Source: Niastella caeni (lineage in GTDB: Bacteria; Bacteroidota; Bacteroidia; Chitinophagales; Chitinophagaceae). Taken from it: a stretch of DNA of 64,000 bases. Made by a program: the position numbers and the translations under genes. Position 1 is the first letter of the stretch. Each line of letters opens with the position of its first letter. Below the pieces are notes generated by a model. That model had not been told where the DNA came from. It was given only the letters and a program-made list of their open reading frames with translations, and made no database searches. This document shows positions 6,857 to 63,033 of the stretch, piece after piece. Location of the stretch: positions 991,347 to 1,055,346 of the forward strand of contig NZ_STFF01000001.1 in assembly GCF_004834005.1 (NCBI RefSeq), in the 5' to 3' direction.

Positions 6857-6886
6857 CAAAAATACGCTACAAGCTGCACGCTGCAA
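6857..6886 (-). promoter_or_regulatory. Bacteroidota-type promoter of mnmE
   Basis: On the minus strand: -33 element TTG (6886-6884), 19 nt, then -7 box TATTTTTG (6864-6857), 25 nt before the mnmE ATG. This matches the TTG-N19-TAnnTTTG consensus. The -33 element lies inside the AAGCTGCAAGC-type repeat words of this spacer. Confidence 0.7.
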
Positions 6887-7036
6887 GCTATAATATAAGC
6901 TGAAGGCAGGGAAAGAAATAAGGAATGAAAAACAGAGGAATTAGGAAGGGAAAAGAAAGTTGACAAGTTAACCGGGAACTGGTACCCGGCAACCGGTAAC
7001 TGGTAACTGGTACCCGGCAACCGGTAACCGGCAACT
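6867..7036. repeat. Intergenic word repeats, AAGCTGCAAGC and CGGTAACTGG families
   Basis: 6867-6905 holds variants of AAGCTGCA(C/A)GC. 6966-7036 is an array of the degenerate words GGTACCCGGCAACC and CGGTAACTGGTAACTGG, which contain self-complementary parts (GGTACC, CCGGTAACCGG). The same words recur at 28909-28966 and 58919-59050. Confidence 0.8.
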
Positions 7037-7081
7037 AAAAAAGGTGCGCCTCCCCTCGCCTGCGGGAAACGCACCTTTTTC
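7037..7081. terminator. Bidirectional intrinsic terminator, end of tonB operon
   Basis: A-run 7037-7042, stem GGTGCG (7043-7048) / CGCACC (7070-7075), T-run 7076-7080. It sits 25 nt beyond the stop of the last tonB gene (minus strand), where the stem is followed by U residues. Confidence 0.8.
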
Positions 7082-7104
7082 CTGTGTGAAATAAACCTAA
7101 CTAC

Positions 7105-7938
7105 CTACTCTTCGGGAAGCTGAAAGCCCAATGGCTGTTTTTTGTACGATTTTACCTGGCGCCCGTTTTGAACGGCGGGTGTCCATTTACCGCTTTTCTT
7201 AATTACCCGAATGGCTTCTGCCCGTAATTCTTCCGGACCGCTCACCGCTTCTACATTACTTACATTGCCATCCTTGTCAACAACGAACTGAACCACTACA
7301 AAACCCTGAACGCCCTGGTCTATCGCAGCCTGTGGATAATGGAGGTTCTTGCGCAGGAACCGCTGCCAGGCTGCTTGCCCGCCGGGGTACTCCGATTCAA
7401 TTTGCACAGAAACAAAGATCCCATCATCGTCCTCTTTTTCTTTTTTAGGCAACTCAACTACATTTCCATTACCATCTCCGGGCGGAGCAATCACTGTTCC
7501 ATCATCACCTACTCCATCCGGGTTGTTCATTGTACCAATCTTTGCATTTTCCAGGTCTGCATTAACAGGTGGTTTGTCTACTTCAGACACTTTATCATCC
7601 GGTACAATGGTGAGTGTAGTGTTCCTGATCGTTTGTACCTGAACGGGCGGTGGCGCCGGGGGCTTCATCGGTGGTGGTGGCGGCTCTACTGGCTTCTCCC
7701 GCGGTTCTACCGAGGCCAATTCAATGTCCTTCGTAAGGAACACAGGGTCCACCTGCTTTTTTTTGCCGGCAAAAACAAACCCGATGAACAACATGAAAAT
7801 TACAGACAACATAACAGTGATGGACAATGTTAAACGCTTTTTGTATGTGCGTCGCAGATCATATGCGCCATACTCTTTATTGCGCCCCTCGAATAAAATG
7901 TCGAGTACATCTGCCGTTAGAATGGTTGAAGTTTCCAT
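7105..7938 (-). CDS. Energy transducer TonB, paralogue 1 of this cluster
   Basis: Couples the inner-membrane ExbB/ExbD motor to TonB-dependent outer-membrane receptors. 277 residues: cytoplasmic N-terminus METSTILTADVLDILFEGR, one membrane anchor at about residues 36-58, a proline-rich periplasmic linker (EPPPPPMKPPAPPP), and a C-terminal TonB domain from about residue 190 (ESEYPGG, then VVVQFVVDKDGNV and KSGKWTPA). Last gene of the exbB-exbD-exbD-tonB-tonB-tonB set, followed by a terminator. The first 64 residues are identical to the next tonB gene (8267-9100), and the DNA of that part differs at only a few positions, whereas the linkers and C-domains differ. This points to recent duplication or gene conversion. 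Confidence 0.93.
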   Translation of the reverse strand: METSTILTADVLDILFEGRNKEYGAYDLRRTYKKRLTLSITVMLSVIFMLFIGFVFAGKKKQVDPVFLTKDIELASVEPREKPVEPPPPPMKPPAPPPVQVQTIRNTTLTIVPDDKVSEVDKPPVNADLENAKIGTMNNPDGVGDDGTVIAPPGDGNGNVVELPKKEKEDDDGIFVSVQIESEYPGGQAAWQRFLRKNLHYPQAAIDQGVQGFVVVQFVVDKDGNVSNVEAVSGPEELRAEAIRVIKKSGKWTPAVQNGRQVKSYKKQPLGFQLPEE

Positions 7939-8012
7939 GGCTATGCTTTATTACTAAGATGCATGCCTTGATGGTTTCCACAACCTTTTTGCTTTTAAGT
8001 TATCTTTTAGTT

Positions 8013-8200
8013 TCTCAAAATACCAATGTGCAAATTAGCAAATTCGAAAATGTACAAATGGAAAACTAAAGTACTCAGTTATTTCATTAATAATGATTAT
8101 CAAGGCATCAACCATCAGTAATTATAGTTTTAATCACTATGCTACGCTTAGCTTCATTTGCACAATTGCTAATTGTCACATTTGCTAATTTGCTTCTAAC
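8013..8200. repeat. Word repeats in inverted arms between tonB paralogues
   Basis: Left arm 8013-8062 repeats CAAATTAGCAAAT-like words; right arm 8155-8200 carries the complement (CATTTGCACAATTGCTAATT and related). Together they form a large imperfect inverted repeat with about 90 nt between the arms. Confidence 0.75.
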
Positions 8201-8214
8201 TACCTCCATGAAAC

Positions 8215-8243
8215 AAAAAATCCCCTCCGTTACCAGAGAGGAT
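8215..8243 (-). terminator. Intrinsic terminator after tonB paralogue 2
   Basis: Minus strand: GAGAGGAT-type stem (8243-8236 with 8227-8220, one mismatch) followed by a U-run encoded by the A-tract 8215-8220. It resembles the terminator after the third tonB gene (9292-9326), so gene and terminator appear to have been duplicated together. Confidence 0.7.
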
Positions 8244-8266
8244 CTAAAATCTTTATTGAGTAATAA

Positions 8267-9100
8267 CTATTCTTCTACAAGACGAAATGCGATCCCTTGA
8301 TTTTTATACGATTTTACCTGATGGCCATTTTGTATCGCCGGTGTCCATTTACCACTTTTCTTAATTACCCGCACTGCTTCTGCGTACAATTCTACCGGCC
8401 CGCTTATGGCCTGCACATCACTCACCATACCATTTTGATCTACAATGAACTTTACCACTACAGTGCCTTGTATCTGGTTATCTATAGCTTCCTGCGAAAA
8501 GCGAAGGTTTTTTGTGAGGTAGCGCTGCCAGGCAGGCGGCCCACCTGGGTATTCGGATTCAATTTCAACCTTCGTAAAAGTTTTTTTCCAGTTTTCTTCT
8601 TCCTCTTTCTTTGGCGCTACTATTACTCCGTTACCACCATCTTCTATTGGTGGGGCTACAATACCTTCATCTTTCAAACCTTCCTGGTTCATGATGCCAA
8701 TTTTGGTATCTTCCAGTTTCGCGGTTTCAGGTGGCTTCTCATCTTCTTTTACCTCTTCATCCTTTACAATTTTGGGTGGTGTGAATTTGGCCATCTCTAC
8801 CTTTGGCGGATCTGGTGGCTTTGGTGGTGGCGGCGGTGGTGGTGGTTCTACCGCACGATCTGGCTTAATATCTGCCAATGTTGCGTCTGGTGGAATAATA
8901 AATTCTTTCGCCAGTTGTGTTTTTTTGCCGGCAAAAACAAACCCGATGAACAACATGAAAATTACAGACAACATAACAGTGATGGACAATGTTAAACGCT
9001 TTTTGTATGTGCGTCGCAGATCATAAGCGCCATACTCTTTGTTGCGCCCCTCGAATAAAATATCGAGTACATCTGCCGTTAGAATGGTTGAAGTTTCCAT
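8267..9100 (-). CDS. Energy transducer TonB, paralogue 2 (mosaic)
   Basis: 277 residues from METSTIL at 9100; an in-frame ATG at 9109 would add three residues. Same plan as its neighbours: short cytoplasmic start, one membrane anchor ending FAGKK, proline-rich linker (EPPPPPPPPKPPDPP), TonB C-terminal domain (ESEYPGGPPAWQRY, VVVKFIVDQNG, KSGKWTPA). The N-terminal 64 residues match paralogue 1 exactly, while the linker (PPDPPKVEMAKFTPPKIVKD) matches paralogue 3, so the gene looks like a recombinant of its two neighbours. In the same run of minus-strand genes as exbB/exbD, but with its own hairpin terminator downstream. Confidence 0.93.
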   Translation of the reverse strand: METSTILTADVLDILFEGRNKEYGAYDLRRTYKKRLTLSITVMLSVIFMLFIGFVFAGKKTQLAKEFIIPPDATLADIKPDRAVEPPPPPPPPKPPDPPKVEMAKFTPPKIVKDEEVKEDEKPPETAKLEDTKIGIMNQEGLKDEGIVAPPIEDGGNGVIVAPKKEEEENWKKTFTKVEIESEYPGGPPAWQRYLTKNLRFSQEAIDNQIQGTVVVKFIVDQNGMVSDVQAISGPVELYAEAVRVIKKSGKWTPAIQNGHQVKSYKNQGIAFRLVEE

Positions 9101-9142
9101 GGCTATCATTTATTACTAAGATGCATAGCCTAACAACTTCCA

Positions 9143-9283
9143 TAATCTATTTGAAAATTTGAAGATGTGCTAATTTGAAAATGAAGAACAGCTACGCTAT
9201 CGCATTCTAATAATAATACAAGTACTACTCAATAAAAGCGATTGCAGTATTAATTCATAAAGCTTCACTTTCAAATCTGCACT
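9143..9283. repeat. Word repeats AATTTGAAAAT between tonB paralogues
   Basis: 9143-9183 carries tandem AATTTGAAAAT/GATGTGCTAATTTG words. A short complementary piece (CACTTTCAAATCTGCAC) lies at 9267-9283. Same word family as 19544-19632 and 31857-31952. Confidence 0.65.
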
Positions 9284-9291
9284 TATAGAAA

Positions 9292-9326
9292 CAAAAAATC
9301 CCCTCCGTTACCGAAGAGGATTTAAA
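9292..9326 (-). terminator. Intrinsic terminator after tonB paralogue 3
   Basis: Minus-strand stem AATCCTC.../...GAGGGGATT (9322-9314 with 9305-9297), then a U-run encoded by the A-tract at about 9292-9297. Paralogous to the hairpin at 8215-8243. Confidence 0.72.
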
Positions 9327-9345
9327 ATTTTTTATTGTGTGATAA

Positions 9346-10182
9346 TTATCCTTCAGATTCAAGACGGAATACGATCGGTTGCTTTTTGTACGATTTTACC
9401 TGGCGTCCGTTTTGTACGGCAGGTGTCCATTTACCACTTTTCTTAATTACACGTACAGCTTCAGGGCGTAATTCCTGTGGTCCGCTGATGGCTTCTACAT
9501 CGCTCACATTTCCTTCCTTGTCTACAATGAACTGTACCACTACAGCACCTTGTACTTCGTTATCGATAGCTTCCTGGGGATAGCGGAGGTTCCTGTTCAG
9601 GTAGCGCTGCCAGGCGGCGGCTCCACCGGGATACTCCGACTCAATTTCCACCTTGGTAAAGGTTTTATCCCAGTCTTCTTCGTCTTTTTTGGGTGCTTCC
9701 ACAACCCCTTTTCCGCCATCGTCAACAGGAGGAGCCACAATTCCTTCATCTTTCTGACCTTCCTGGTTCATTGTACCAATCTTGGTCTCTTCCAGTTTGT
9801 TAACTTCTGGTGGTTTTTCTTCCTCTTTTACCTCTTCATCTTTTACGATTTTAGGAGGTGTGAACTTTGCCATCTCCACTTTGGGTGGATCTGGTGGTTT
9901 TGGTGGGGGCGGCGGTGGCGGCTCTTCTTTCTTCTCCTCTTGTTTTATTTCTTCAAGCTGCACGTCTTGCACCACCACGTTCTTGGCTTCAGCTTTGTCA
10001 TCGAGTAAATTGGATACTACGTACCCAACAAACAACAGAAGACAAAGCGCGCCTACTATAAGAAGCGATGTTACCAGTCGCTTATTATAGCTCTTGCGCA
10101 GTTGATAAGCACCGTAGTCCTTATTCCTGCCCTCAAAGATGATGTCGAGAACATCAGCGCTTAATATTTTATTGACTTCCAT
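9346..10182 (-). CDS. Energy transducer TonB, paralogue 3 (promoter-proximal)
   Basis: 278 residues. Cytoplasmic start MEVNKILSADVLDIIFEGR, one membrane segment (VTSLLIVGALCLLLFVGYVV, about residues 37-56), acidic and proline-rich linker (EEPPPPPPPKPPDPP), TonB C-terminal domain (ESEYPGGAAAWQRYL, VVVQFIVDKEGNV, KSGKWTPAVQNGRQV). Lies directly after exbD with a 53-nt gap, so it is the copy most likely cotranscribed with the motor genes. Its anchor differs from the other two paralogues, but its linker is shared with paralogue 2. Confidence 0.94.
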   Translation of the reverse strand: MEVNKILSADVLDIIFEGRNKDYGAYQLRKSYNKRLVTSLLIVGALCLLLFVGYVVSNLLDDKAEAKNVVVQDVQLEEIKQEEKKEEPPPPPPPKPPDPPKVEMAKFTPPKIVKDEEVKEEEKPPEVNKLEETKIGTMNQEGQKDEGIVAPPVDDGGKGVVEAPKKDEEDWDKTFTKVEIESEYPGGAAAWQRYLNRNLRYPQEAIDNEVQGAVVVQFIVDKEGNVSDVEAISGPQELRPEAVRVIKKSGKWTPAVQNGRQVKSYKKQPIVFRLESEG

Positions 10183-15534: not shown

Positions 15535-15806
15535 TTTGTGGTTTGTGGTTTGAGGTTTGAGGTTTGTAGTTTGTAGTTGCTTCGCAGTTTGATCCTTACT
15601 ACCAACCCGGGCTCAAAGATTTTCGCAGAAATAGTTTATACTACAACATAAAGTCCGAAAGAAGGAATGCCGTAACAGGCACCTCTTTCGGACTTTCTTA
15701 TTAGGTTTTGTAAATTGAGAATTGAGCTTGCGATCGGGGGCGAAATTTGAAACCTGGACTTTAGGTTCAACTTGGGGGAACAACCATAAACCACAAACAA
15801 TAAACC
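15535..15806. repeat. Inverted word repeats GTTTGTGGTTT / AAACCACAAAC around a terminator
   Basis: Left arm 15535-15580 tandemly repeats GTTTGTGGTTTGAGGTTT. The right arm near 15783-15805 is its complement, AAACCACAAACAATAAACC. The terminator hairpin at 15650-15696 lies between them. The same 19-mer occurs inside the pseudouridine synthase gene at 51 kb. Confidence 0.8.
15650..15700. terminator. Strong bidirectional terminator between convergent genes
   Basis: Perfect 13-bp stem AAAGTCCGAAAGA (15650-15662) / TCTTTCGGACTTT (15684-15696) with a 21-nt loop. It separates the plus-strand protease gene from the minus-strand permease gene. Confidence 0.85.
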
Positions 15807-17908: not shown

Positions 17909-17936
17909 TTCAGCTAATGGTCGGCCATATTATGAC

Positions 17937-17972
17937 ATGGGGCTTTACCTAAAAGGTTAGCCCCATTATTTT
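17937..17972 (+). terminator. Intrinsic terminator after the beta-barrel gene
   Basis: ATGGGGCT (17937-17944) / AGCCCCAT (17959-17966) with an inner ACCT/AGGT pairing, then TATTTTG. Confidence 0.75.
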
Positions 17973-17978
17973 GGGATT

Positions 17979-18085
17979 GTTTGATGGCTGAATTGCTTGA
18001 TGGTTTTGATCGTTGAATAATTAGCTTTATGAATATTCGCAGTAAACCCGAATATCTGCAGGCCTGGCCATCAATCCATCTAACC
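17979..18085. repeat. Word repeats TTGATGG / CCATCAA
   Basis: 17979-18020 carries TGATGGCTGAATTGCTTGATGG-like words; 18066-18085 carries the complement (CCATCAATCCATCTAACCAT). Same family as the array at 62757-62920. Confidence 0.6.
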
Positions 18086-18152
18086 ATGAAAAGAGGCAGG
18101 GACGGACTTTTTAATTAGCCCCACTAATTATGTTAACTGACCAATTATGTCA

Positions 18153-19541
18153 TTACAGATAAAAGAAAGAATACAACTGATTGAGCAACCAGTGCGGGAA
18201 GATACCCAGCAGGATCACCACCGCGGCAATAACGATCAACAAACCTTTGAAGCTGCGGGAAGTTTCTATTTCCTGGGGATCACCGTCTTTAAAATACATG
18301 GCCTGTATAACGCGGAAATAATAATACACGCTGATGGCGGCGCATAACACCCCAACTATAACCAGCCACAATACATTACCATCTTCTACAGCGGCTGATA
18401 ACATATAGAACTTGGCCCAGAAACCGGCCGTGGCGGGAATACCAGCCAATGATAACAGGAATACAGTATTGGTAGCAGCCAGTACCGGTTGGCGTTTGGC
18501 CAGTCCATTGAAACCTTCAAAGGTGTAGTCCTTCATTTTCAACAGTACGGCAAAAATGCCAATGGTAGCCAGGCTATAGGCGGCAGCATAAAAGATCATC
18601 CCCTCTTTGGCCATATTGTTCATGGCCACCAGGGCAAACAACATGAAACCGGCTTGCGCAATACTTGAATACGACAACATTCTTTTTACACTTTGCTGGA
18701 ACACAGCCGTAATGTTGCCGATAAACAAAGTTGCAGCCGTAATAATAGCCGCCAGCAATTGCCATTGTCCTTTTACGTCGCCGAAGCAACCTTCGAACAA
18801 ACGGATAAAGGCAATGAAACCGGCCACCTTCACGATCGTTGCCATGAAAGAAGTGAACACGGTTGGTGCGCCGTCGTATGCATCAGGCGTCCAGAAGTGA
18901 AAAGGCACCGCAGATACTTTGAACGACATGGCAAACAACAGCAGCAATAAACCGGCTGCTATCATCGGCGTTAAATTCAACGTACCCTGGCGGATCACTT
19001 CCATATCAAAACTACCTTTTACGCCATAGATAAGGGTAATACCCATGAGCATAATGCCGGTAGAAAAAGAACCCATTAAAAAGTATTTGAGCGCAGCTTC
19101 ATTGCTTTTGAGATTGCGCTTATCGCTTCCGGTTAAAATATACAGCGGAATAGAAATGATCTCGATACCCAGGAACAGCATCAACAGTGAATTGAATGAC
19201 GACACGATGGCAATTCCGCACAGCACAAAAAATATCAATGCAAAGTATTCAGCCAGGTTCACGCCCACGCGTTCCATATCCCTGCCCGACAGCAGAAAAT
19301 AGATCCAGGTGCTGCCAAAGGCAATGGTATTGAACAGCAAGCCAATTATGTCGAAGGACAACATGCCCCTTACGTTCACCTTTTCAAAAAAATGATATCC
19401 GCCCATGTCCAGCACATTGGATACTACCAAACCCAGCAGGCCAATGATAGCTACCGTGCGTACAGCGGTTTTACTATTCGTGAACACGCCACAGAACATC
19501 ATCACTACACCCAGAACAGCTGAAATTACAATTGCATTCAT
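18153..19541 (-). CDS. nuoN: NADH-quinone oxidoreductase subunit N
   Basis: 462 residues, about 14 membrane segments; one of the three antiporter-like proton-pumping subunits of complex I. Seen: conserved charged residues within helices (e.g. Lys in FAMSFKVSAVPFHFWTPDAY, the hallmark of the family) and VKRMLSYSSIAQAGFML. Last gene of the nuo series. The 102-nt gap from nuoM is filled with word repeats. Confidence 0.97.
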   Translation of the reverse strand: MNAIVISAVLGVVMMFCGVFTNSKTAVRTVAIIGLLGLVVSNVLDMGGYHFFEKVNVRGMLSFDIIGLLFNTIAFGSTWIYFLLSGRDMERVGVNLAEYFALIFFVLCGIAIVSSFNSLLMLFLGIEIISIPLYILTGSDKRNLKSNEAALKYFLMGSFSTGIMLMGITLIYGVKGSFDMEVIRQGTLNLTPMIAAGLLLLLFAMSFKVSAVPFHFWTPDAYDGAPTVFTSFMATIVKVAGFIAFIRLFEGCFGDVKGQWQLLAAIITAATLFIGNITAVFQQSVKRMLSYSSIAQAGFMLFALVAMNNMAKEGMIFYAAAYSLATIGIFAVLLKMKDYTFEGFNGLAKRQPVLAATNTVFLLSLAGIPATAGFWAKFYMLSAAVEDGNVLWLVIVGVLCAAISVYYYFRVIQAMYFKDGDPQEIETSRSFKGLLIVIAAVVILLGIFPHWLLNQLYSFFYL

Positions 19542-19543
19542 AA

Positions 19544-19632
19544 ATCAATTTGAAAATTAGCAAATTAGCAAATGTGCCAATGGAATACAGGATTTTCATT
19601 TTCGCATTTGCACATTTTCACATTTGCATATT
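19544..19632. repeat. Inverted word repeats in the nuoM-nuoN spacer
   Basis: AATTTGAAAATTAGCAAAT and CAAATGTGCC words (19549-19585) are followed by the complement TTTTCGCATTTGCACATTTT (about 19600-19630). They fill nearly the whole spacer, as imperfect inverted arms. Confidence 0.8.
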
Positions 19633-19643
19633 TATACGTTCGC

Positions 19644-21125: not shown

Positions 21126-21242
21126 TCGTGAAACGTGAAACGGATTTCGTGAGTGGTCAGTTGTCAGTGGTGAGTTGGCTCCTAAAATTTCAGATCTCCT
21201 TTTTTCGCGAGCCCTATTCACCCTCACTACTCATCATTCACC
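21126..21242. repeat. Word repeats in the nuoL-nuoM spacer
   Basis: GTGAAACGTGAAACGG and AGTGGTCAGTTGTCAGTGG (21129-21178), then complementary CCTCACTACTCATCATTCACC-like words at 21221-21242. Confidence 0.65.
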
Positions 21243-23163: not shown

Positions 23164-23293
23164 CAGTTTAAGCTTAACGCTTAACGCGTAATGCTGAACG
23201 CTGCTCTCCGAATTTCGGACCTCCCGCAAAGAAACCAGACATCTTGAAATGCGGGCGGGGGCGTTGAGCGTTCGGCGTTTAGCGCTCCGCGTT
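23164..23293. repeat. Inverted word repeats AACGCTTAACGC in the nuoK-nuoL spacer
   Basis: Left arm 23169-23204 (GCTTAACGCTTAACGCG and AATGCTGAACGC); right arm 23258-23293 is complementary (GCGTTGAGCGTTCGGCGTTT). Between them lie the palindrome TCCGAATTTCGGA (23208-23220) and a CCCGCA...TGCGGG hairpin. The spacer is longer than usual for nuo genes. Confidence 0.8.
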
Positions 23294-23623: not shown

Positions 23624-23637
23624 AACTCTTTATAATA

Positions 23638-23722
23638 TGCTGAACGCCTAACGCAAAACGCTTAACGCAAAACCAAATCTGTATTTGCTTGCAGCGTGAA
23701 GCGTGTAGCTTGCAGCCGTTTT
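23638..23722. repeat. Word repeats in the nuoJ-nuoK spacer
   Basis: GAACGCCTAACGCAAAACGC words (23642-23672) and GCTTGCAGCGTGAAGCGTG words (23690-23717). These are the AACGC and AAGCTGCAAGC families also seen at 23164-23293 and 6867-6905. Confidence 0.7.
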
Positions 23723-28908: not shown

Positions 28909-28966
28909 TATGTTACCGGTTACCGGTTGCCAGTTCCCGGTATCCGGTAACTGGCAACTGGTAACA
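28909..28966. repeat. Inverted word repeats in the nuoE-nuoF spacer
   Basis: TTACCGGTTACCGGTTGCCAG (about 28914-28933) followed by its near complement CGGTAACTGGCAACTGGTAA (about 28945-28964). Same words as 6966-7036. Confidence 0.75.
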
Positions 28967-31856: not shown

Positions 31857-31952
31857 AGTCAATTTGAAAATAAATCAATTTGAAAATTTGAAAATAAATG
31901 CCCAAGGCCTGTGCCAACCATTTTCAAATTAGCACATCTTCAAATTTTCAAA
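31857..31952. repeat. Inverted word repeats AATTTGAAAAT in the nuoC-nuoD spacer
   Basis: AATTTGAAAATAAATCAATTT (about 31861-31880) and a second copy, then the complement ATTTTCAAATTAGCAC and CTTCAAATTTTCAAATT at about 31918-31952, fill the spacer completely. Confidence 0.8.
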
Positions 31953-33122: not shown

Positions 33123-33262
33123 ATTAAATTTGAAATTTAGCCAATTAGCAAATGTGCAAATGATATTTTATATAACAACCCACTTATAATTAGGTTGCTT
33201 TTTCCCTAAATGAATGCAGCAAAGGCATTTTCACATTTGCTAATTTTTACATTTGCACATTG
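33123..33262. repeat. Inverted word repeats in the nuoA-nuoB spacer
   Basis: AATTTGAAATTTAGCCAATT and CAAATGTGCAAATG (33126-33163), then TTTTCACATTTGCTAATTT and ACATTTGCACATT (about 33226-33261), complementary arms about 60 nt apart. Confidence 0.8.
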
Positions 33263-37157: not shown

Positions 37158-37643
37158 ATGAAAATTTTAATGGTTTGCCTCGGCAATATTTGCAGGAGCC
37201 CGCTGGCCGAAGGCATTTTGCAACATAAAGCCCAACAGGAGGGATTGTCATGGACCGTTGATAGCGCCGGCACCAACGGTTATCATGTAGGGGAAGCACC
37301 GCACCGGCTATCACAGAAAGTAGCCCTGTTGAACGGCATAGATATCAGTCACCAACGTGCGCGCCGCTTTACGGCCGTCGATTTTAAACAGTACGATAAG
37401 ATCTATGCCATGGCGGAAGATGTGATCGATGAAATGCAGCGCATAGCCCGGAAAGATTTTGACGCTGCCAGGGTTGATCTGCTGATGAATGAACTATACC
37501 CCGGCAAAAACATGGACGTGCCCGACCCCTGGTATGGCACCGAACCCGGCTATCATGAAGTATACGAGATGATCGATAAAGCATGCGATAAAATCATAGA
37601 TAAATATCGAATACTGAATGAAGAACGCCGAATGTCGAAGTAA
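37158..37643 (+). CDS. Low-molecular-weight protein-tyrosine phosphatase
   Basis: 161 residues from ATG 37158; a TTG three codons earlier lies inside the -7 box and is unlikely. Catalytic P-loop VCLGNICRSPLAEG near the start (nucleophilic Cys and Arg of CxxxxxR) and the general-acid loop DVPDPWYG near residue 119. Normal length. Dephosphorylates Tyr residues, arginine-phosphate in some relatives. Probably monocistronic with hisS following about 100 nt later. Confidence 0.93.
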   Translation: MKILMVCLGNICRSPLAEGILQHKAQQEGLSWTVDSAGTNGYHVGEAPHRLSQKVALLNGIDISHQRARRFTAVDFKQYDKIYAMAEDVIDEMQRIARKDFDAARVDLLMNELYPGKNMDVPDPWYGTEPGYHEVYEMIDKACDKIIDKYRILNEERRMSK

Positions 37644-37712
37644 AGGCAAAGCTAATCCGGTATTCACTTCAACATTCAACATTCGATATTCGACATTCAA
37701 TATTTAACAATC
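37603..37712. repeat. Inverted word repeats GAATGTCGAA / TTCGACATTC after the phosphatase
   Basis: The left arm GAATACTGAATGAAGAACGCC / GAATGTCGAAG overlaps the last codons of the phosphatase; the right arm (37672-37710) repeats TTCAACATTCAACATTCGAT and TTCGACATTCAATATTT. AACGCCGAATGTCGAAGTAAAGGC-like text here is shared with 49908-49935. Confidence 0.8.
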
Positions 37713-46284: not shown

Positions 46285-46378
46285 AATTTAGAGATCCCGG
46301 GATTTAGAGATTTTGAGGTTTGTTCAAAGGTTCGCACCAGGGAAATCCCTAAATCCCTAAACCTGCCTGCCGGCAGGA
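46285..46378. repeat. Inverted word repeats GGGATTTAGAG / AAATCCCTAAATCCC and CCTGCCGGCAGG palindrome
   Basis: Left arm 46287-46322 (TTAGAGATCCCGGGATTTAG and related); right arm 46342-46361 (GAAATCCCTAAATCCCTAAA). CCTGCCGGCAGG (46366-46377) follows. The short ORF seen across this stretch is therefore not a gene. Confidence 0.7.
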
Positions 46379-48840: not shown

Positions 48841-48844
48841 CGGC

Positions 48845-50951: not shown

Positions 50952-52277
50952 ATGGCACAAGGATTTAAGAAATTCATGGATAAGGGCGATAGCGGCTCCA
51001 AAAAGAAAGAACGCATCCGCCAGGAAAAGAAAAAAGTTCGTCAGGAAACCAAGGAATACTTCGAAAAGAAAAAGCAGGAAGCCCGGGAAGCCAGGGCGCA
51101 AGGGCAGGCTGGTTATAAGAAAGCTGCAAGCTTCAAGCCTAAAGCGGAAAGCAGAGGCAACGAGGCAACAAGGCATAAAGGCATAGAGAAAGCTGCAAGC
51201 TTCAAGCCACAAGCTGCAAACAATACAGGGAAAGCCCAAAAAGCGGGAGCCCAACCACAAACCACAAACAATAAACCACAAACTACAAAAGCGGGCGCCC
51301 AACCAGAAACCACAAACAATAAACCACAAACTGCAAAAGCGGGCGCCCAACCACAAACCACAAACAATAAACTACAAACTACAAAAGCGGGAGCCCAACC
51401 ACAAACCACAAACAATAAACCACAAACTGCAAAAGCGGGAGCCCAACCACAAACTTCAAACCACAAACCACAAACCACAAACTACAAACCACAAACCACA
51501 AACAATAAACCAGAAACTGCCGTTTCCGGCTCCATGCCTCTAAACAAATTCATTGCCCATGCAGGTATCTGCTCACGCCGCGATGCAGCCGAAATGGTAA
51601 AGGCAGGCAAAGTAATTGTGAATGGCGAAAAGATCACCGAACCCGGTCATAAAGTAACCGACAAAGACGACATTAAAGTAAATGGCAAGAAGCTGCACAT
51701 TCGCAAGAACCTCGTCTATATTCTGCTCAACAAACCAAAAGATTATATCACCACTACCGAAGATCCGCAAGGCAGAAAAACGGTATTGGACATTATACGC
51801 AACGCAACTCCGGAACGTGTATACCCCATCGGTCGTTTAGACAGAAATACCACCGGCGTATTGTTACTCACCAACGATGGAGAGCTGGCCCAAAAGCTTT
51901 CGCACCCCAGCTATGAAATAAAAAAGATCTACGAAGTAAAACTCGATAAACCACTGGTAAAAAAAGATTTCGATAACCTCCTGAACGGCGTTACCCTCGA
52001 AGATGGGTTCGTTGCACCTGACGGCCTGGCCTATGCCGACCCCAAGGACAAAAGCGTTATCGGTATCGAAATTCACAGTGGCCGCAACCGCATCGTTCGC
52101 CGCATATTCGAACACCTGGGTTATGATGTTCGCAATCTCGACCGGGTTATGTATGCCAACCTCACCAAGAAAAATGTAGACAGAGGCAAATGGCGCTTCC
52201 TCACCGAAAAGGAAGTACGCCTGCTGAAATACCTGAACGCCTCTTATACAAAAAACAAAACAGTTGCACGTGGTTAA
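50952..52277 (+). CDS. RsuA/RluB-type pseudouridine synthase with a repeat-encoded N-terminal linker
   Basis: 441 residues from ATG 50952 (MAQGFKKFMDK); a TTG at 50928 is possible. N-terminal 190 residues are Lys/Ala/Gln-rich and unfolded in appearance. S4 RNA-binding domain from about 197 (LNKFIAHAGICSRRDAAEM), then the catalytic domain with GRLDRNTTGVLLLTNDGEL (catalytic Asp) and the SGRNRIVRRIFEHLGYDV ending. Modifies 23S or 16S rRNA uridine. The linker is built of DNA words that also fill the intergenic spaces. The next synthase gene overlaps its end. A TACCTTCG box at 50907-50914 may be the promoter. Confidence 0.93.
   Translation: MAQGFKKFMDKGDSGSKKKERIRQEKKKVRQETKEYFEKKKQEAREARAQGQAGYKKAASFKPKAESRGNEATRHKGIEKAASFKPQAANNTGKAQKAGAQPQTTNNKPQTTKAGAQPETTNNKPQTAKAGAQPQTTNNKLQTTKAGAQPQTTNNKPQTAKAGAQPQTSNHKPQTTNYKPQTTNNKPETAVSGSMPLNKFIAHAGICSRRDAAEMVKAGKVIVNGEKITEPGHKVTDKDDIKVNGKKLHIRKNLVYILLNKPKDYITTTEDPQGRKTVLDIIRNATPERVYPIGRLDRNTTGVLLLTNDGELAQKLSHPSYEIKKIYEVKLDKPLVKKDFDNLLNGVTLEDGFVAPDGLAYADPKDKSVIGIEIHSGRNRIVRRIFEHLGYDVRNLDRVMYANLTKKNVDRGKWRFLTEKEVRLLKYLNASYTKNKTVARG
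51120..51235 (+). repeat. AAGCTGCAAGCTTCAAGC words inside the pseudouridine synthase gene
   Basis: Two copies of GCTGCAAGCTTCAAGCC, encoding KAASFKPKA and KAASFKPQA, with GGCAACGAGGCAACAAGGC-like text between them. The same AAGCTGCAAGC words occur in intergenic DNA at 6867-6905 and 23690-23717. Confidence 0.75.
51240..51521 (+). repeat. 48-nt tandem repeats encoding KAGAQPQTTNNKPQTT
   Basis: Four 48-nt units (51240, 51288, 51336, 51384) and a longer fifth (51432-51521) encode variants of KAGAQPQTTNNKPQTT. The DNA is made of ACCACAAACCACAAACAA-like words, including AAACCACAAACAATAAACC, exactly as in the spacer near 15787-15805. Confidence 0.95.
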
Positions 52278-52989
52278 AGTATCACCGGAGATCATTTTCG
52301 AGAACGATCATTTTATTGTAATCAATAAACCGCCAGGCTTATTAAGCATCCCCGACCGGGAAGGAAAGGAAATTTCGCTGAAGCAAATGCTACAGCAGAA
52401 ATACGGCGAAATATATACCGTTCACCGCCTCGACCGCGAAACCAGCGGTATCATCGTATTTGCCAAGGACTCCGAAACGCATAAGTTCTTATCGCAGGCA
52501 TTTGAAGATAGAACGGTGGAGAAATATTATGTAGGCATTGTGAGCGGCACCTTACCCGAAAAACAAAAGACCATCGAAGCGTCTATCAGGGAGAGCACCG
52601 TTAAAAGAGGGCTCATGCTCATTCATAAAAACGGAAAGCCCGCCATTACCGATTATGAAGTGGTAGAAGAGTTTGGCAAGTTTTCGTTTTTGCAGTTCCG
52701 TATTCATACCGGCCGTACCCACCAGATCAGGGTACACATGCAATACGTTGGTCACCCGTTGGTATGTGATGAATTGTATGGCGATGGCATCCCGGTAAAG
52801 ATCTCTTCTTTTAAACGCAACTATAAATTGTCGAAATACGAGGAAGAAGAAAAGCCTATTCTGGCAAGAACAGGTTTGCACGCGCAACGGTTACGTTTTA
52901 CCGATATGTTGGGTAAGGAATACGACCTGCAGGCCGAAATGCCGAAAGATATGCGGGCGTTATTACAGCAGTTACGAAAAAATAGTTAA
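52270..52989 (+). CDS. RluA/RluD-family pseudouridine synthase
   Basis: 239 residues from GTG 52270 (TTG 52264 also in frame). Both starts lie inside the end of the previous gene, so the two synthases are translationally coupled. Seen: VINKPPGLLSIPD, catalytic YTVHRLDRETSGIIVFAKD, the RVHMQYVGHPLVCDELYG segment, and RTGLHAQRLRF. No S4 domain. Site specificity cannot be read from sequence. Confidence 0.92.
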   Translation: MVKVSPEIIFENDHFIVINKPPGLLSIPDREGKEISLKQMLQQKYGEIYTVHRLDRETSGIIVFAKDSETHKFLSQAFEDRTVEKYYVGIVSGTLPEKQKTIEASIRESTVKRGLMLIHKNGKPAITDYEVVEEFGKFSFLQFRIHTGRTHQIRVHMQYVGHPLVCDELYGDGIPVKISSFKRNYKLSKYEEEEKPILARTGLHAQRLRFTDMLGKEYDLQAEMPKDMRALLQQLRKNS

Positions 52990-53060
52990 TTGGTTATTGA
53001 GTTATTGAGTTCGTGATTTAAATTATGAACTTAATAACTCAACAACTTACGAACTTCGAA
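52987..53060. repeat. Inverted word repeats between convergent genes
   Basis: TTGGTTATTGAGTTATTGAG (52991-53010) followed by TTAATAACTCAACAACTTAC (53030-53049) and GAACTTCGAAC. Complementary arms of a hairpin in the 70-nt gap between the pseudouridine synthase and the amidohydrolase, so it may serve as terminator. Confidence 0.75.
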
Positions 53061-58905: not shown

Positions 58906-59210
58906 TCAATACACAAGTTAGTGAAATTGGTGAATGGTGAGTTGTGTCGTTGCCGGTTACCAGGCTCTAAATTTCAGCATTGCTGCCAATAATCAAGCTG
59001 TTCTTGTTTTCAGCCCTGGAAACCGGTAAATGGTAACCGGGAACTCATTGTTTAAGATTATTTTAATTTTATTGAAAATGAATCTCTATTGGAAGAAGGA
59101 CTTGAACATTTGAAAAAGCATGTTTTCTCAATTAAATCTTGGCCCCCGCCAAGATTTTTGAATTAACCGGCTGGTAGCTTTGTACCTGTAATAAACATAC
59201 AGCTCTAAAC
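58906..59210. other. Divergent spacer between DNA polymerase IV and DinB-like gene, with words
   Basis: 305 bp. Words: GGTGAATGGTGAGTTG (58931-58946), GCCGGTTACCAGG (58952-58964) and GGAAACCGGTAAATGGTAAC (59017-59036), the latter of the CGGTAACTGG family. A TAGCTTTG box (59173-59180) suits the plus-strand gene at 59211-59220. No gene. Confidence 0.6.
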
Positions 59211-59219
59211 ATGTGTTTC

Positions 59220-60295: not shown

Positions 60296-60303
60296 AAGCC
60301 CGG

Positions 60304-60335: not shown

Positions 60336-60340
60336 TGGTG

Positions 60341-60375: not shown

Positions 60376-60437
60376 GGGTTCAATTGGAAATAACCAATTG
60401 GTAACCATGATATAACGTCTCATGCTAGGGTCATGCC

Positions 60438-60506
60438 AAGGTTATCCTAGGGTCATCCTTGGGTTTAAACCTTAGGATGACCCTAGGATAATACTAAGAT
60501 AACCTT
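60438..60506. repeat. Nearly perfect 48-nt palindrome between rimM and rpsP
   Basis: TATCCTAGGGTCATCCT (60443-60459) and its exact complement AGGATGACCCTAGGATA (60474-60490), a perfect 17-bp stem, with the palindrome GGTTTAAACC in the centre (60462-60471). A further pair AAGGTTAT / ATAACCTT lies outside (60438-60445 and 60499-60506). The words AGGGTCAT and AGGTTATCC repeat inside it. Confidence 0.9.
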
Positions 60507-60572
60507 AAGTTGAACCTGGGATACAGGCTTCATGTAGCCTTGAGAACTATTTAAGATGAGGGCATTGCCAAA

Positions 60573-60608
60573 AAAAGGCGGCCACCCCCTGAAGGATGAC
60601 CGCCTTTT
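60573..60608. terminator. Bidirectional hairpin between rimM and rpsP
   Basis: AAAAGGCGG (60573-60581) / CCGCCTTTT (60600-60608), 9-bp stem with A and T flanks. Confidence 0.7.
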
Positions 60609-60638
60609 GCGGGTTCATGACCGCTTTCTAAAAGAAAA

Positions 60639-60669
60639 AAATCCCGCCGGGTAAACCGAAACGGGATTT
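60639..60669 (-). terminator. rpsP terminator
   Basis: AAATCCCG (60669-60662) stem with CGGGATTT (60646-60639) on the minus strand, followed by a U-run (60638-60634). 32 nt after the rpsP stop. Confidence 0.8.
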
Positions 60670-60701
60670 AACAAGTTGACAGCTAGCTATACTGCGTAGG
60701 A

Positions 60702-61133
60702 TTATTCTCCTCTGCCTTTTCTTACGGGTGGACCACCCACACCGCCTCTACGGGGTCTTCTATCCCGTGCATTTGTCTCCTGGCGCTTTTTAACCTGAAC
60801 CTCGTGCTCAGCATGCCACTTCTGGAATTTCTCCATAGCGGTAGCTTCGTCGAATAGACCCAGTTTTACACCACGCAACAAATGTTTCAGGTACAGTACA
60901 CCTTTGTAAGACAGGATTCTGCGCACAGTATCAGTAGGTTGAGCGCCTTTGTGCAGCCAATCTAAGGCTTTCTGGCGATCTAACTGAATTGTTGCAGGAA
61001 CTGTAAGAGGGTTGTAAGTACCTAATTTTTGGATAAACTTACCATCACGCGGAGAGCGTGCATCGGCCACTACGATGAAATAAAAAGGTCTCTTTTTAGA
61101 CCCATGGCGTTGCAGTCTGATTTTAACTGGCAT
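60702..61133 (-). CDS. rpsP: 30S ribosomal protein S16
   Basis: 143 residues. The S16 core [33 protein letters not shown] and GTYNPL is in residues 2-45. The C-terminal extension from about 85 is long and basic ([20 protein letters not shown] and a [11 protein letters not shown] tail), longer than the roughly 80-residue enterobacterial form; extended S16 is common in Bacteroidota. Confidence 0.97.
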
Positions 61134-61184
61134 CTTAAATAGAAATTTAAATGCGTGAACAAATAGGGTTACTTTCCATTATAA

Positions 61185-61221
61185 CGATTGCAAAAATAGC
61201 AATCGAACTGATTTTTCCAAA
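61185..61221 (-). promoter_or_regulatory. rpsP promoter with the -7 box in a perfect inverted repeat
   Basis: Minus strand: TTTG (61221-61218), exactly 19 nt, TATTTTTG (61198-61191). CGATTGC (61185-61191) and GCAATCG (61199-61205) form a perfect 7-bp inverted repeat surrounding the -7 box. The rpsP ATG lies 57 nt downstream. Confidence 0.75.
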
Positions 61222-61408
61222 TTTATAATTCAGATCAATTATCAACAGCTTTATTAGTCTATAATTCCGAATAAAACACATGAAATTAATCCTGAAAATA
61301 TTGCTAAAAAAACCCTTCAGCGCACAAGGTAACGAATTGGCAGGGTAACCCAATCCAATATGACCTGATTTACTTTTTCAACCTGAAAATTTAATTGTTT
61401 CTACTTAC

Positions 61409-62725
61409 TTAGCGCTTCATCCCCATACGCCCCATCGGCATTTTATTCATCATTTTCATCATCTGTTTCATCTGCTCAAACTGCTTCAAAAAGGCGTTCA
61501 CTTCGTTGAGGTCTTTACCTGAACCTTTGGCAATGCGTTGTTTGCGGCTCATATTTATCAGATCGGGGTCGGTGCGTTCTGCCTGGGTCATAGAGTTGAT
61601 CATCGCTTCAATTCCCTTAAACGCATCGTCGCTGATATCAATATCCTTGATGGCCTTTCCCACACCCGGTATCATACCCAACAGGTCTTTGATATTACCC
61701 ATCTTCTTTATTTGTTCCAACTGCTGTTTAAAGTCCTCGAAGTTGAACTGGTTTTTGCGGATCTTCTTTTCCAGCTTGCGGGCTTCCTCTTCATCAAATT
61801 GCTGTTGCGCTTTTTCTACCAGGGTGGTAATATCACCCATACCCAAAATACGCTGGGCCATACGTTCGGGGTAGAACACATCGAGCGTATCGAGCTTTTC
61901 GCCACTGCTTACAAATTTAATGGGCTTTTGAACTGTGTATTTGATAGAAAGGGCAGCACCACCGCGGGTATCACCATCGAGCTTGGTGAGCACCACACCG
62001 GTGAAGTTAAGCCGATCGTTAAACGCTTTTGCCGTGTTCACTGCATCCTGACCGGTCATGGAATCCACAACAAACAGGATCTCCTGCGGATTAACGGCTG
62101 ATTTAACGTTGGCAACTTCGGTCATCATAGCCTCATCGATGGCCAAACGGCCGGCAGTATCGATGATCACTACGTTTTTATTTTTACTGCGGGCTTCCCT
62201 GATGGCATTGGTAGCAATCTGCACCGCATTCTTATTCTCGGGTTCGCTGTATACATCTACCTGGATCTGTTCGCCCAGCACTTTTAACTGGTCAATGGCC
62301 GCAGGGCGATAAATATCGGCCGCTACGAGCATAGGCGAAAGCCGGCTTCTTGTTTTGAGGAAATTGGCCAGTTTGGCGCTGAAGGTGGTTTTACCAGACC
62401 CCTGGAGGCCGGCAATTAAAATAACGGCGGGATTGCCTTTGGCGTTGAAATCGCTTTCACTGCCGCCCATCAGTTCGGCCAGTTCGTCTTTCACGATCTT
62501 CACCATTAACTGGCCGGGACTTACAGCAGTTAACACTTTATTTCCCAGCGCCTTATCCTTTACTTTATCGGTAAATTCCTTGGCTATTTTATAGTTCACG
62601 TCGGCATCTACGAGGGCGCGACGGATATCTTTTACTGTGGCAGCAATATTGAGTTCGGTAATACGGCCTTCACCCTTTATCTGTTTAAAGGCTGACTCGA
62701 GCCGGTCGGTAAGATTTTCAAACAT
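61409..62725 (-). CDS. ffh: Signal recognition particle protein (SRP54)
   Basis: 438 residues. N and G domains: GLQGSGKTTFSAKLAN (G1), DTAGRLAIDE (G3), LTKLDGDTRGGAA (G4). Then the M domain with LIGMIPGVGK and RKQRIAKGSG; the end QMKQMMKMMNKMPMGRMGMK is the methionine-rich signal-binding part. Normal length. Directs nascent membrane proteins to FtsY. 275 nt from rpsP, which has its own promoter. Confidence 0.98.
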   Translation of the reverse strand: MFENLTDRLESAFKQIKGEGRITELNIAATVKDIRRALVDADVNYKIAKEFTDKVKDKALGNKVLTAVSPGQLMVKIVKDELAELMGGSESDFNAKGNPAVILIAGLQGSGKTTFSAKLANFLKTRSRLSPMLVAADIYRPAAIDQLKVLGEQIQVDVYSEPENKNAVQIATNAIREARSKNKNVVIIDTAGRLAIDEAMMTEVANVKSAVNPQEILFVVDSMTGQDAVNTAKAFNDRLNFTGVVLTKLDGDTRGGAALSIKYTVQKPIKFVSSGEKLDTLDVFYPERMAQRILGMGDITTLVEKAQQQFDEEEARKLEKKIRKNQFNFEDFKQQLEQIKKMGNIKDLLGMIPGVGKAIKDIDISDDAFKGIEAMINSMTQAERTDPDLINMSRKQRIAKGSGKDLNEVNAFLKQFEQMKQMMKMMNKMPMGRMGMKR

Positions 62726-63033
62726 TGGTTCCTGTTTTATCTACAGTCCTTAAATTCTGATGGTTTGATGATTTTATTGCTTGATGGTTATGGTTTCCGC
62801 TATTCGTTCAGGTTGCCAATTATCAGAGCGCCAGCCAGTTCAACAACCAAACCATCGAACCATTAAGCCATCTAACAATCAATCGCTCGAACAATCAAGC
62901 CATTCAGCCATCAATTTGATAAAAACAAAAAAGTGAATATATCATAAGTTATATTCACTTTATGGACTGCAAATTTACAGGAAGTAAATTTTGTTTGTGT
63001 AAAGTTTCTTTTGCCGGCTATAAAATTTTAAAG
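62726..63033. repeat. Gene-free spacer with inverted word repeats TTGATGG / CCATCAA
   Basis: 308 bp. Left arm 62757-62792: GATGGTTTGATGATTTTATT and GCTTGATGGTTATGG. Right arm 62842-62920: CAAACCATCGAACCATTAAG, CATCTAACAATCAATCG and CAATCAAGCCATTCAGCCAT. Same words as 17979-18085. The rpoD terminator follows (62931-62960). Confidence 0.8.
62931..62960 (-). terminator. rpoD terminator
   Basis: Perfect 11-bp stem AAGTGAATATA (62931-62941) / TATATTCACTT (62950-62960), 8-nt loop; the minus strand continues with TTTTTTGTTTTTATC. Confidence 0.85.

What the first reader, a model, noticed from the sequence alone, without database searches (positions are those of the whole stretch)
6867..62920. Some twenty spacers carry locus-specific word arrays built as large inverted repeats
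Seen directly: many intergenic spaces hold a 10-20-nt word repeated in tandem with variation, and often its complement as a second arm, separated by 10-230 nt. The word changes from locus to locus (AAACCACAAAC, AATTTGAAAATTAGCAAAT, AACGCTTAACGC, GGTAACTGG, TTGATGGTTTG, GGGATTTAGAG, AATAACTCAA, TTCGACATTC), but the architecture is constant. Loci: 6867-7036, 8013-8200, 9143-9283, 15535-15806, 17979-18085, 19544-19632, 21126-21242, 23164-23293, 23638-23722, 28909-28966, 31857-31952, 33123-33262, 37603-37712, 46285-46361, 52987-53060, 58919-59050, 62757-62920. They resemble neither REP/BOX nor classic IS ends. They could be products of template-switching replication, of an unknown enzyme that copies local words in both orientations, or bidirectional RNA-structure elements.
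Basis: partly seen in the sequence, partly recalled or inferred. Interest (0 to 1): 0.75.

Follow-up and report, generated by a model that had tools for sequence, protein, structure and literature searches.

The report
Mirror-image word arrays between genes
The spaces between genes in this bacterium (likely a Niastella) hold many stretches, often in mirror-image pairs, built from a shared set of loosely spelled 7-, 8- and 11-letter DNA words; they were likely written onto DNA ends one word at a time rather than copied from neighbouring sequence, though no enzyme for this was found.

Summary
The pattern is real but not locus-specific. Of the 17 listed loci, 16 have inverted arms and 13 a tandem array beyond dinucleotide shuffles (p<0.05). 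In 864 kb, array periods are almost only 7 (128), 8 (54) and 11 (17) of 219; shuffles give 1-3, 2-4 and 1-3. Words come from a genome-wide vocabulary: 97 of 128 seven-mer arrays have the identical consensus word elsewhere (26 expected). Unit order is random, and next-door units are little or no more alike than units of unrelated loci, though units 2-4 steps apart are in three of five families. The two arms of a locus share the word, nearly always in one orientation (86 of 92), yet are no more complementary than arms of different loci. That argues against template switching, local copying and single-unit slippage. Arrays of many words end in one junction motif, RAATACAG (28 of 38 within 0-3 nt). 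Slots turn over between species. Closest known kind: Xanthomonas/Nostoc heptamer arrays (PMC4692102). Best reading (inferred, 0.33): stepwise addition of words to 3' ends, then joining. Rivals: selected binding-site arrays, mobile palindromes, slippage.

The parts
6867..7036 (.). AAGCTGC 7-mer stub (6866-6889) and AACYGGY 7-mer array (6969-7035)
   Evidence: tandem p=0.005; inverted arms p=0.075, not significant
8013..8200 (.). AATNNGMW 8-mer arrays as inverted arms 8030-8071 / 8152-8193; loop found once in this genome
   Evidence: in G006 and G007 the same slot carries the GATAAT form of the word in both arms
9143..9283 (.). AATNNGMW-type 8-mer arms
   Evidence: arms p=0.01, tandem p=0.09
15535..15806 (.). 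GTTTGTG / CACAAAC (AAACNAY) 7-mer arms between convergent genes, with a terminator-like hairpin inside the loop
17979..18085 (.). TTGATGG / CCATCAA arms, best period 8, weak
   Evidence: arms p=0.035, tandem p=0.09
19544..19632 (.). AATNNGMW 8-mer arms between two Proton_antipo_M (nuo-type) genes; empty 21-22 bp spacer in six of eight same-genus relatives and in G011
19584..19590 (+). junction motif AATACAG at the inner end of the left array
21126..21242 (.). CGTGAAA array and AGTGGTC-type 7-mer arms
23164..23293 (.). AACGCNN 7-mer arms with a loop
   Evidence: loop found once in this genome; homologues in G007 (85%) and at another place in G005 (75%)
23638..23722 (.). AACGCNN array facing an AAGCTNY-type array
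   Evidence: slot empty (17 bp) in G001, G003, G009 and filled with other words in G002/G007 and G004/G005
23679..23685 (-). junction motif AATACAG (CTGTATT on +) at the inner end of the right array
28909..28966 (.). GTTACCGG / CCGGTAAC 7-mer hairpin with a 3-nt loop
31857..31952 (.). AATNNGMW-type 8-mer arms
33123..33262 (.). AATNNGMW 8-mer arms around a core; arrays with other unit spellings in all eight same-genus relatives, inverted arms scoring >=36 in seven of them
37603..37712 (.). GAATNNY 7-mer arms
46285..46361 (.). GATTTNGN / AAATCNCN 8-mer arms
52987..53060 (.). AGTTATTG / AACTCAAT 8-mer arms between convergent stop codons
   Evidence: inverted arms scoring >=36 at this slot in all nine relatives: AGTTATTN-like words in G001 and G006, AGTTAACN-like in G002, G004, G007, G009, other palindromes in G003, G005, G011 (by eye)
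58919..59050 (.). GGTTACC / GGTAACC-type arms, weak tandem signal
   Evidence: arms p=0.01, tandem p=0.11
62757..62920 (.). TTGATGG / CCATCAA arms, best period 8
   Evidence: arms p=0.005, tandem p=0.16; other hairpins between the same flanks in several relatives
60417..60522 (.). 11-nt-period palindromic array (CCTAGGGTCAT)
   Evidence: 11-nt arrays in the same slot in G002, G004, G009
51077..51520 (+). arrays of three words (AAGCNNN, AGGCAACG, AAACNAY) lying in frame in the linker of an S4/pseudouridine-synthase gene, with AATACAG at 51222-51228

Best explanation
These are single arrays, and facing pairs of arrays, of degenerate 7-, 8- or 11-nt words drawn from a genome-wide vocabulary, and each array was likely written by stepwise addition of words to a DNA 3' end, so that a break healed in this way would carry the same word, facing inward, on both sides of a new loop. 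Shown: period quantisation; shared vocabulary; random unit order; next-door units little or no more alike than units of unrelated loci; same word in both arms with a word-specific orientation; arms that are not copies of each other; a junction motif at array ends that is common to different words; empty and refilled slots among relatives; low occupancy of divergent (promoter) spacers. Inferred: that the writing happens at breaks or other free 3' ends in tolerated spacers; that a reverse-transcriptase-like or other repeat-adding activity with a short, loosely read template does it; that the junction motif is where addition stops; that the loop is filler from joining. Any effect on expression would be secondary. 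The enzyme is not identified.
For: Orientation: in 92 two-arm loci of eight word families (orthologous loci included), 86 have the majority orientation of their word; own genome alone 48 of 50. In 130 array palindromes of this genome and relatives the left arm is richer in G than C in 105, poorer in 19, equal in 6; own genome alone 48, 12 and 2 of 62, against 37, 48 and 9 of 94 non-array palindromes. Arms are independent draws: within-locus minus cross-locus complementarity 0.02 +/- 0.05, n=92. Order: locus pairs sharing runs of 2-3 units lie within the range of the pooled shuffle in five word families. P(adjacent units identical) against units of other arrays is 0.203/0.152, 0.071/0.050, 0.069/0.163, 0.143/0.130, 0.121/0.060 in this genome and 0.042/0.106 in G331. 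Junction: AATACA lies 0-3 nt from an array end in 28 of 38 cases, control word 1 of 4; it faces the spacer interior in 25 of 32; RATAATGRAATACA has 9-79 places in seven same-genus genomes with 0-2 backward controls. G331, of another genus, uses the AAGCTNY word with another end motif, GGGNTTCTAA-like, in at least eight of 20 loci read by eye. Two window loops tested occur once in this genome. Empty sites. Precedent: DRT10, a bacterial telomerase-like repeat-adding reverse transcriptase (PMC12632851, abstract and passages).
Against: No enzyme or template was found. Two reverse-transcriptase domains were scored in this genome: one is best matched by the retron type XIII model, the other matches only the general RVT_1 model over cut-off. 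Well over ten words would need many templates. DRT10 makes free, protein-primed cDNA with a 9-nt unit, and 9 is nearly absent here. Units 2-4 steps apart are identical about twice as often or more than between arrays in AAACNNN (0.287-0.346 vs 0.152), AAGCNNN (0.143-0.179 vs 0.050) and AATNNGNN (0.15-0.286 at lags 2-3 vs 0.060), and some arrays have 14-, 21- or 48-nt higher-order repeats: multi-unit slippage or recombination takes part. Besides 50 facing pairs, the eight families have 23 direct pairs within 250 nt in 864 kb. Two of 39 loops clearly resemble sequence at another locus (82% over 71 nt; 83% over 35 nt), which looks like copying. AAGCTNY is not G-rich, so 'G-first' is not universal. 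The GATAAT-word junction is absent from G003 and G009 (1 and 0 places, controls 1 and 1). Fixed positions change far less than synonymous sites between G006 and G007, which suits the binding-site rival. AATACAG also precedes some arrays.
Confidence: 0.33

Rival explanations
1. Selected arrays of recognition sites. Each word would be a degenerate binding motif (fixed core, free spacer positions) for a protein or RNA, set in facing arrays at gene 3' ends. Free positions drift neutrally, so units, arms and loci look like independent draws.
For: In gap-free anchored arrays fixed phases differ little between G006 and G007 (11 of 253 and 5 of 179, by reference genome) against 24 of 71 and 39 of 164 at variable phases and 7626 of 19957 four-fold sites. 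Word-specific orientation, shared vocabulary and the junction motif fit. In tandem spacers arrays lie nearer the stop codon in 62 of 96 and nearer the start in 34.
Against: Slots empty and refill with different words among relatives, and more than ten words would need as many binders. Fixed phases change about as fast as the rest of the same spacers (0.053 vs 0.082 in six well-aligned spacers; 0.218 vs 0.243 over all aligned spacers), so special constraint is not proven. Nine other species comparisons gave only 0-5 usable arrays each, with mixed results.
Confidence: 0.25
2. Mobile palindromic elements of the REP/MITE type whose arms are word arrays; the junction motif would be part of the element's ends.
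For: Presence/absence at a site (19542-19643, 23624-23722); recurrent families with word-specific orientation; a few shared loops; a Y1-type transposase domain in each of nine same-genus genomes searched.
Against: The two window loops tested occur once in the genome; unit order is not shared between loci; arms are not copies of each other; 117 of 199 arrays are in no inverted arm. No clear target-site duplication was seen at the empty sites read (by eye).
Confidence: 0.18
3. Neutral simple-sequence growth: polymerase slippage in 7- and 8-nt steps (or multiples) plus template switching between arms.
For: Heptamers are the commonest long repeat unit in many prokaryotes and 7 nt was proposed as a polymerase footprint (passages in PMC4679880, and PMC4692102). 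Units 2-4 steps apart are more alike than units of other arrays in three of five families, and higher-order 14/21/48-nt repeats exist. Direct pairs occur (23 within 250 nt). Template switching can make hairpins (PMC8794818, abstract).
Against: Next-door units are little or no more alike than units from unrelated loci; arms are no more complementary within a locus than across loci; words are shared genome-wide; orientation is word-specific; a common junction motif exists.
Confidence: 0.17

Closest known systems
GGGAATC / GGGGA(C/T)T heptamer arrays of Xanthomonas and Nostoc (Rehm et al. 2015, PMC4692102; sections 10 and 16 and passages read)
   Same: Degenerate 7-nt units with fixed and free positions (GGGANTN), 186 and 183 sites in two Xanthomonas genomes, mostly intergenic, near the upstream gene's end, rare between divergent genes, 70 and 75 cases as facing (convergent) pairs, lengths and sequence variable between sister species.
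   Different: One G-tract word that can form G-quadruplexes. Here there are many words at once, periods 7, 8 and 11, no G-tract requirement, and a junction motif at array ends.
TAACTGA heptamer direct repeats (MacGregor 2015, PMC4679880; abstract, passages and the Bacteroidetes section read)
   Same: Intergenic heptamer arrays, also in some Bacteroidetes, where other heptamers occur alongside and relatives may lack the array.
   Different: Essentially one word, direct rather than inverted, often just upstream of start codons; one indirect repeat reported in the main genome.
Long simple sequence repeats (Mrazek 2007; known here only through PMC4679880 and PMC4692102)
   Same: Excess of 7-nt units.
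   Different: As described there, repeats beyond those expected in a genome; here units differ at set positions and 8 and 11 are also allowed.
REP/BIME palindromes and RAYT transposases (recalled; RepRanger paper PMC12306157 seen only as a passage)
   Same: Short intergenic palindromes, variable between species.
   Different: REP copies share a conserved palindrome; here copies share a word grammar, not a sequence.
DRT10 tandem-repeat synthesis (PMC12632851, preprint; abstract and passages read)
   Same: A bacterial activity that adds short words repeatedly.
   Different: Free, protein-primed cDNA with a 9-nt unit; no genomic arrays mentioned in what was read.

Membership tests
Xanthomonas/Nostoc-type heptamer arrays | tandem 7-nt units with fixed and free positions | tested here: met
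Xanthomonas/Nostoc-type heptamer arrays | facing (inverted) pairs | tested here: met
   (direct pairs also occur)
Xanthomonas/Nostoc-type heptamer arrays | near the 3' end of the upstream gene, rare between divergent genes | tested here: met
   stop side nearer in 62 of 96 tandem spacers; occupancy of 100-350 bp spacers 18/29 convergent, 63/167 tandem, 11/52 divergent
Xanthomonas/Nostoc-type heptamer arrays | single G-tract word able to form G-quadruplexes | tested here: not met
   110 distinct consensus words over periods 7, 8 and 11, most without GGG; quadruplex formation itself not tested
REP/BIME | copies share one conserved palindromic sequence | tested here: not met
REP/BIME | Y1 (RAYT-like) transposase in the genome | tested here: met
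   1-3 Y1_Tnp matches in each of nine same-genus genomes searched; not shown to act on these arrays
MITE / IS-derived element | conserved interior shared between copies | tested here: not met
   (exceptions: two loop pairs and one AACGC loop in G005)
MITE / IS-derived element | target-site duplication | tested here: inconclusive
   empty sites read by eye; array edges too repetitive to place
Intrinsic terminators | the array hairpin is the conserved terminator of the slot | tested here: not met
   by eye: separate terminator-like hairpins in slots 7939, 15535, 60347 and 62726; slot 52990 may be an exception
Known structured RNA (Rfam) | match to any Rfam family | tested here: not met
   0 matches at gathering score in the window

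The most novel reading that the evidence does not exclude
A bacterial telomerase-like or terminal word-adding activity heals breaks in spacers: each 3' end is extended with degenerate words from a fixed vocabulary up to a stop motif (RAATACAG in Niastella, a GGGNTTCTAA-like motif in G331), and the two ends are then joined, leaving head-to-head 'telomere fusions' scattered by the hundred through circular bacterial genomes.
Probability: 0.15. Interest if true: 0.95.

Novelty: new variant of a known kind. Interest (0 to 1): 0.66.

Why it matters
Short-unit arrays in bacteria are usually explained by slippage. Here units are nearly independent draws from a degenerate word, the arms are not copies of each other, the orientation is word-specific and a junction motif is shared by different words. 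Together these point to a writing or recognition activity for which I found no description in the papers searched. The genus offers many natural before/after pairs, so the question is testable by strain resequencing and break-repair assays. If the end-addition reading is right, it would give bacteria a chromosomal counterpart of telomere addition.

Tried and rejected
Local copying of words from flanking genes: at most a slight effect. Copying of arrays between loci as blocks: no sign in five word families. Arm-to-arm correction: no sign. RNA-pairing selection by the wobble test: no signal. Shared loop motif by k-mer enrichment in loops: weak; the signal is at array ends. Rfam: nothing. Reverse transcriptases as writers: one retron type XIII-like enzyme and a second RT domain, neither linked to arrays. 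A loop homologue next to that enzyme in G005 was looked at and judged a neighbouring spacer element, not a template. Constraint test in nine other species comparisons: 0-5 usable arrays each. Literature: nine paper searches listed no description of multi-word facing arrays in Bacteroidota; only open-licence PMC text was searched and lists were capped. Early notes call the 18153-19541 protein 'gldN-like'; that was recall and wrong, Pfam gives Proton_antipo_M.

Full report
OBSERVATION. The window is G000:C1:991347-1055346 of an 8.10 Mb genome. One same-genus relative, G004, has a contig of 9,033,684 bases, the stated length of Niastella koreensis GR20-10 in PMC3751351 (passages), so the genus is taken to be Niastella (inference). 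In 464 kb of the same contig, intergenic inverted arms scoring >=42 number 48 against 1, 2 and 0 in three shuffles, coding 13 against 6, 3 and 7. Period 7, 8 and 11 segments in spacers number 39, 14 and 6, with their multiples also high; other periods from 4 to 13 give 0-4; shuffles average at most 0.33; coding sequence has 14, 6 and 2 at 7, 8 and 11. In 864 kb the non-overlapping array counts for periods 5 to 13 are 4, 4, 128, 54, 5, 4, 17, 1 and 2; three shuffles give 1-3 at 7, 2-4 at 8, 1-3 at 11 and 0-4 elsewhere. That is about 230 arrays per Mb for periods 7, 8 and 11.

WORDS. The words are not private to a locus. Of 128 seven-mer arrays 97, and of 54 eight-mer arrays 32, have an identical consensus word (any rotation or strand) more than 2 kb away; shuffled words give 26.4 and 2.6. 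For 17 eleven-mer arrays no exact recurrence was found. Words have fixed and free positions, for example AAACNAY, AAGCTNY, AACYGGY, GAATNNY, AATNNGMW, AAATCNCN. The same degenerate words occur in other genera: AAACNAY three times in a row has 323 places in G000 (backward control 12), 121 in G007 (0), and 1 to 8 in eight other genomes (10 of 70 family genomes; in one of these, G350, the control is 7 against 8). The AAGCTNY pattern has 203 in G000 (control 4), 63 in G331 of another genus (0), and 1 to 6 in seven others (9 of 70). The AACYGGY pattern occurs in 6 of 296 phylum genomes, G000 included. In 220 kb of G013, of the same family, 18 of 19 arrays have period 7 or 8; 220 kb of G040, of the same class, shows 11 at period 7 against 1 in a shuffle, with other periods near their shuffle values or slightly above.

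WHAT THE UNITS SAY. The order of units is random: the number of locus pairs that share a run of two or three units lies within the range of a pooled shuffle in five families. Next-door units are little or no more alike than units from unrelated arrays (adjacent against between: 0.203/0.152, 0.071/0.050, 0.069/0.163, 0.143/0.130, 0.121/0.060; G331 0.042/0.106). Against this, units two to four steps apart are identical about twice as often or more than between arrays in AAACNNN (0.287-0.346), AAGCNNN (0.143-0.179) and AATNNGNN (0.15-0.286 at lags 2-3), but not in GGNAACN, GAATNNN or G331. So multi-unit slippage or recombination takes part in some arrays, while single-unit slippage, which would make neighbours identical, does not explain them.

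WHAT THE ARMS SAY. Among same-period pairs in one spacer 24 are inverted, 5 direct, 2 ties and 21 unrelated, while random pairs from different loci are 11.5% inverted and 12.1% direct. In 92 two-arm loci of eight families, in this genome and its relatives (orthologous loci included), 86 share the orientation of their family; in this genome alone 48 of 50, beside 23 direct pairs within 250 nt. In 130 array palindromes the left arm is richer in G than C in 105, poorer in 19, equal in 6; in this genome alone 48, 12 and 2, against 37, 48 and 9 for non-array palindromes. With the same word, left and right arms of one locus are no more complementary than arms of different loci (difference 0.02 +/- 0.05, n=92; two of eight families higher within, six lower). 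In slots where species use different words the two arms of a locus do go together (slot 52990: mean score 51 within, 31 across, 9 of 9); where species share the word the difference is small (slot 33121: 54 and 49; slot 23163: 46 and 47). So the two arms receive the same word but are not copies of each other.

JUNCTION MOTIF. AATACA is among the enriched 6-mers in 35-nt windows at the ends of 354 arrays from this genome and eight relatives (37 against 13.1 expected); 28 of 38 occurrences lie 0-3 nt from the array end, control ACATAA 1 of 4. It follows arrays of at least seven different words (by eye), and faces the spacer interior in 25 of 32. Of 42 intergenic AATACAG in 864 kb, 19 have an array-like upstream 38 nt (score >=7); for AATACAA 8 of 57; four scrambled controls give 3 of 45. 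Genome-wide, RATAATGRAATACA occurs 14 times in G000, 31 in G006, 37 in G004, 46 in G007, 79 in G005, 41 in G002, 9 in G001, 1 in G003, 0 in G009 and 0 in the incomplete G008, with 0-2 backward controls; in G004 four pairs face each other 65-67 nt apart. Some AAGC arrays have AATACAG on both sides. In G331, 20 AAGCTNY loci were read; at least eight arrays end instead in a GGGNTTCTAA-like motif (by eye). A second enriched end word, CGTCCT (13 against 1.2), was not followed up.

TURNOVER. Syntenic stretches from eight same-genus genomes and G011 were compared. Slot 19542-19643 is 21-22 bp in six of eight same-genus relatives and in G011, but filled in this genome and G007, and partly in G005. Slot 23624-23722 is 17 bp in G001, G003 and G009, and holds AACGC (here), AAATCTC (G002, G007) or GAATGTC (G004, G005) words. 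Slot 52990-53060 holds inverted arms in all ten genomes, with at least two word types and other palindromes. Slot 17909-18152 had no syntenic match. The tree of 16 proteins makes the filled genomes of slot 19542 non-monophyletic, so there were losses, parallel gains or exchange. Between G006 and G007, 159 orthologous spacers were found: arrays in both 33, in one only 29, in neither 97. Substitution rates over the aligned spacers: variable phases 0.442, fixed phases 0.218, other sequence 0.243. In six spacers chosen for low divergence outside arrays they are 0.336, 0.053 and 0.082. In gap-free anchored arrays, fixed 11/253 and 5/179, variable 24/71 and 39/164, four-fold sites 0.382. The free positions change fast; whether the fixed ones are specially constrained depends on the comparison. 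Nine other comparisons gave 0-5 usable arrays each, with mixed values: G005/G002 fixed 0.158 and 0.069, variable 0.455 and 0.471; W/G007 fixed 0.279, variable 0.256.

PLACEMENT. Occupancy of 100-350 bp spacers is 18/29 convergent, 63/167 tandem, 11/52 divergent; in tandem spacers the array is nearer the stop in 62 and nearer the start in 34. Seven of the 17 listed loci lie in the nuo-type gene cluster between 18153 and 33676. Separate terminator-like hairpins exist in slots 7939, 15535, 60347 and 62726 (by eye). Arrays of three words with AATACAG also lie in frame in the linker of a pseudouridine-synthase gene, and the eight same-genus relatives have diverged linkers there, several with similar translated words.

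MECHANISM. Template switching, local copying and single-unit slippage are each poorly supported by a direct test. Three readings lead: stepwise addition of words to 3' ends followed by joining (preferred, 0.33), selected recognition-site arrays (0.25) and mobile palindromes (0.18). Addition explains together the word-specific inward orientation, the same word in both arms without copying, near-independent units, unpaired arrays, mostly unique loops, empty sites and a common inner end motif. Its weak points are the missing enzyme, the size of the vocabulary, a few shared loops, multi-unit repeats in some arrays, direct pairs, and the low change at fixed positions. Two reverse transcriptase domains were scored in this genome; one is best matched by the retron type XIII model, the other only by RVT_1 over cut-off, and neither is linked to arrays.

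KNOWN KIND. The nearest described elements are the degenerate heptamer arrays of Xanthomonas and Nostoc (PMC4692102; sections 10 and 16 and passages read): same kind of degenerate unit, placement and facing pairs, but one G-tract word. This is therefore filed as a new variant of a known kind, with many words, three allowed periods and an end motif.

Noticed in passing
51077-51520: Arrays of three words, with the AATACAG end motif, lie in frame in the N-terminal linker of an S4/pseudouridine-synthase gene; relatives carry diverged linkers, several with similar translated words.
   Followed up: partly
L296:2455-3960 (G000:C13) and L298-L305: A reverse transcriptase frame of about 500-520 aa is found in G000 and eight same-genus relatives; the two proteins scanned (G000, G004) are best matched by the PADLOC retron type XIII model. 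A frame of 553 aa lies beside it in five of the nine loci.
   Followed up: partly
G000:C10:200734-201069 and same-genus genomes: A Y1_Tnp (RAYT-like) open frame of 146-171 aa is found in each of nine same-genus genomes searched.
   Followed up: no
slots 52990-53060 (G005) and 62726-63033 (G001, G006, G007): A different palindrome type, GTGTGCCACG...CGTGGCACAC-like, takes the place of the word arrays in some relatives.
   Followed up: no
array ends in 864 kb plus relatives: A second word, ACGTCC/CGTCCT, is enriched about 9 nt beyond array ends (13 against 1.2 for CGTCCT).
   Followed up: no
60417-60522 and the same slot in G002, G004, G009: 11-nt-period arrays (CAGGGACCTNA-like in the relatives) form palindromes beside a terminator-like hairpin.
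   Followed up: partly
L177, L182, L186, L189, L191, L195 (G331): Another genus uses the AAGCTNY word with a different end motif, GGGNTTCTAA-like; AGGTAAN arrays lie alongside in some loci.
   Followed up: partly
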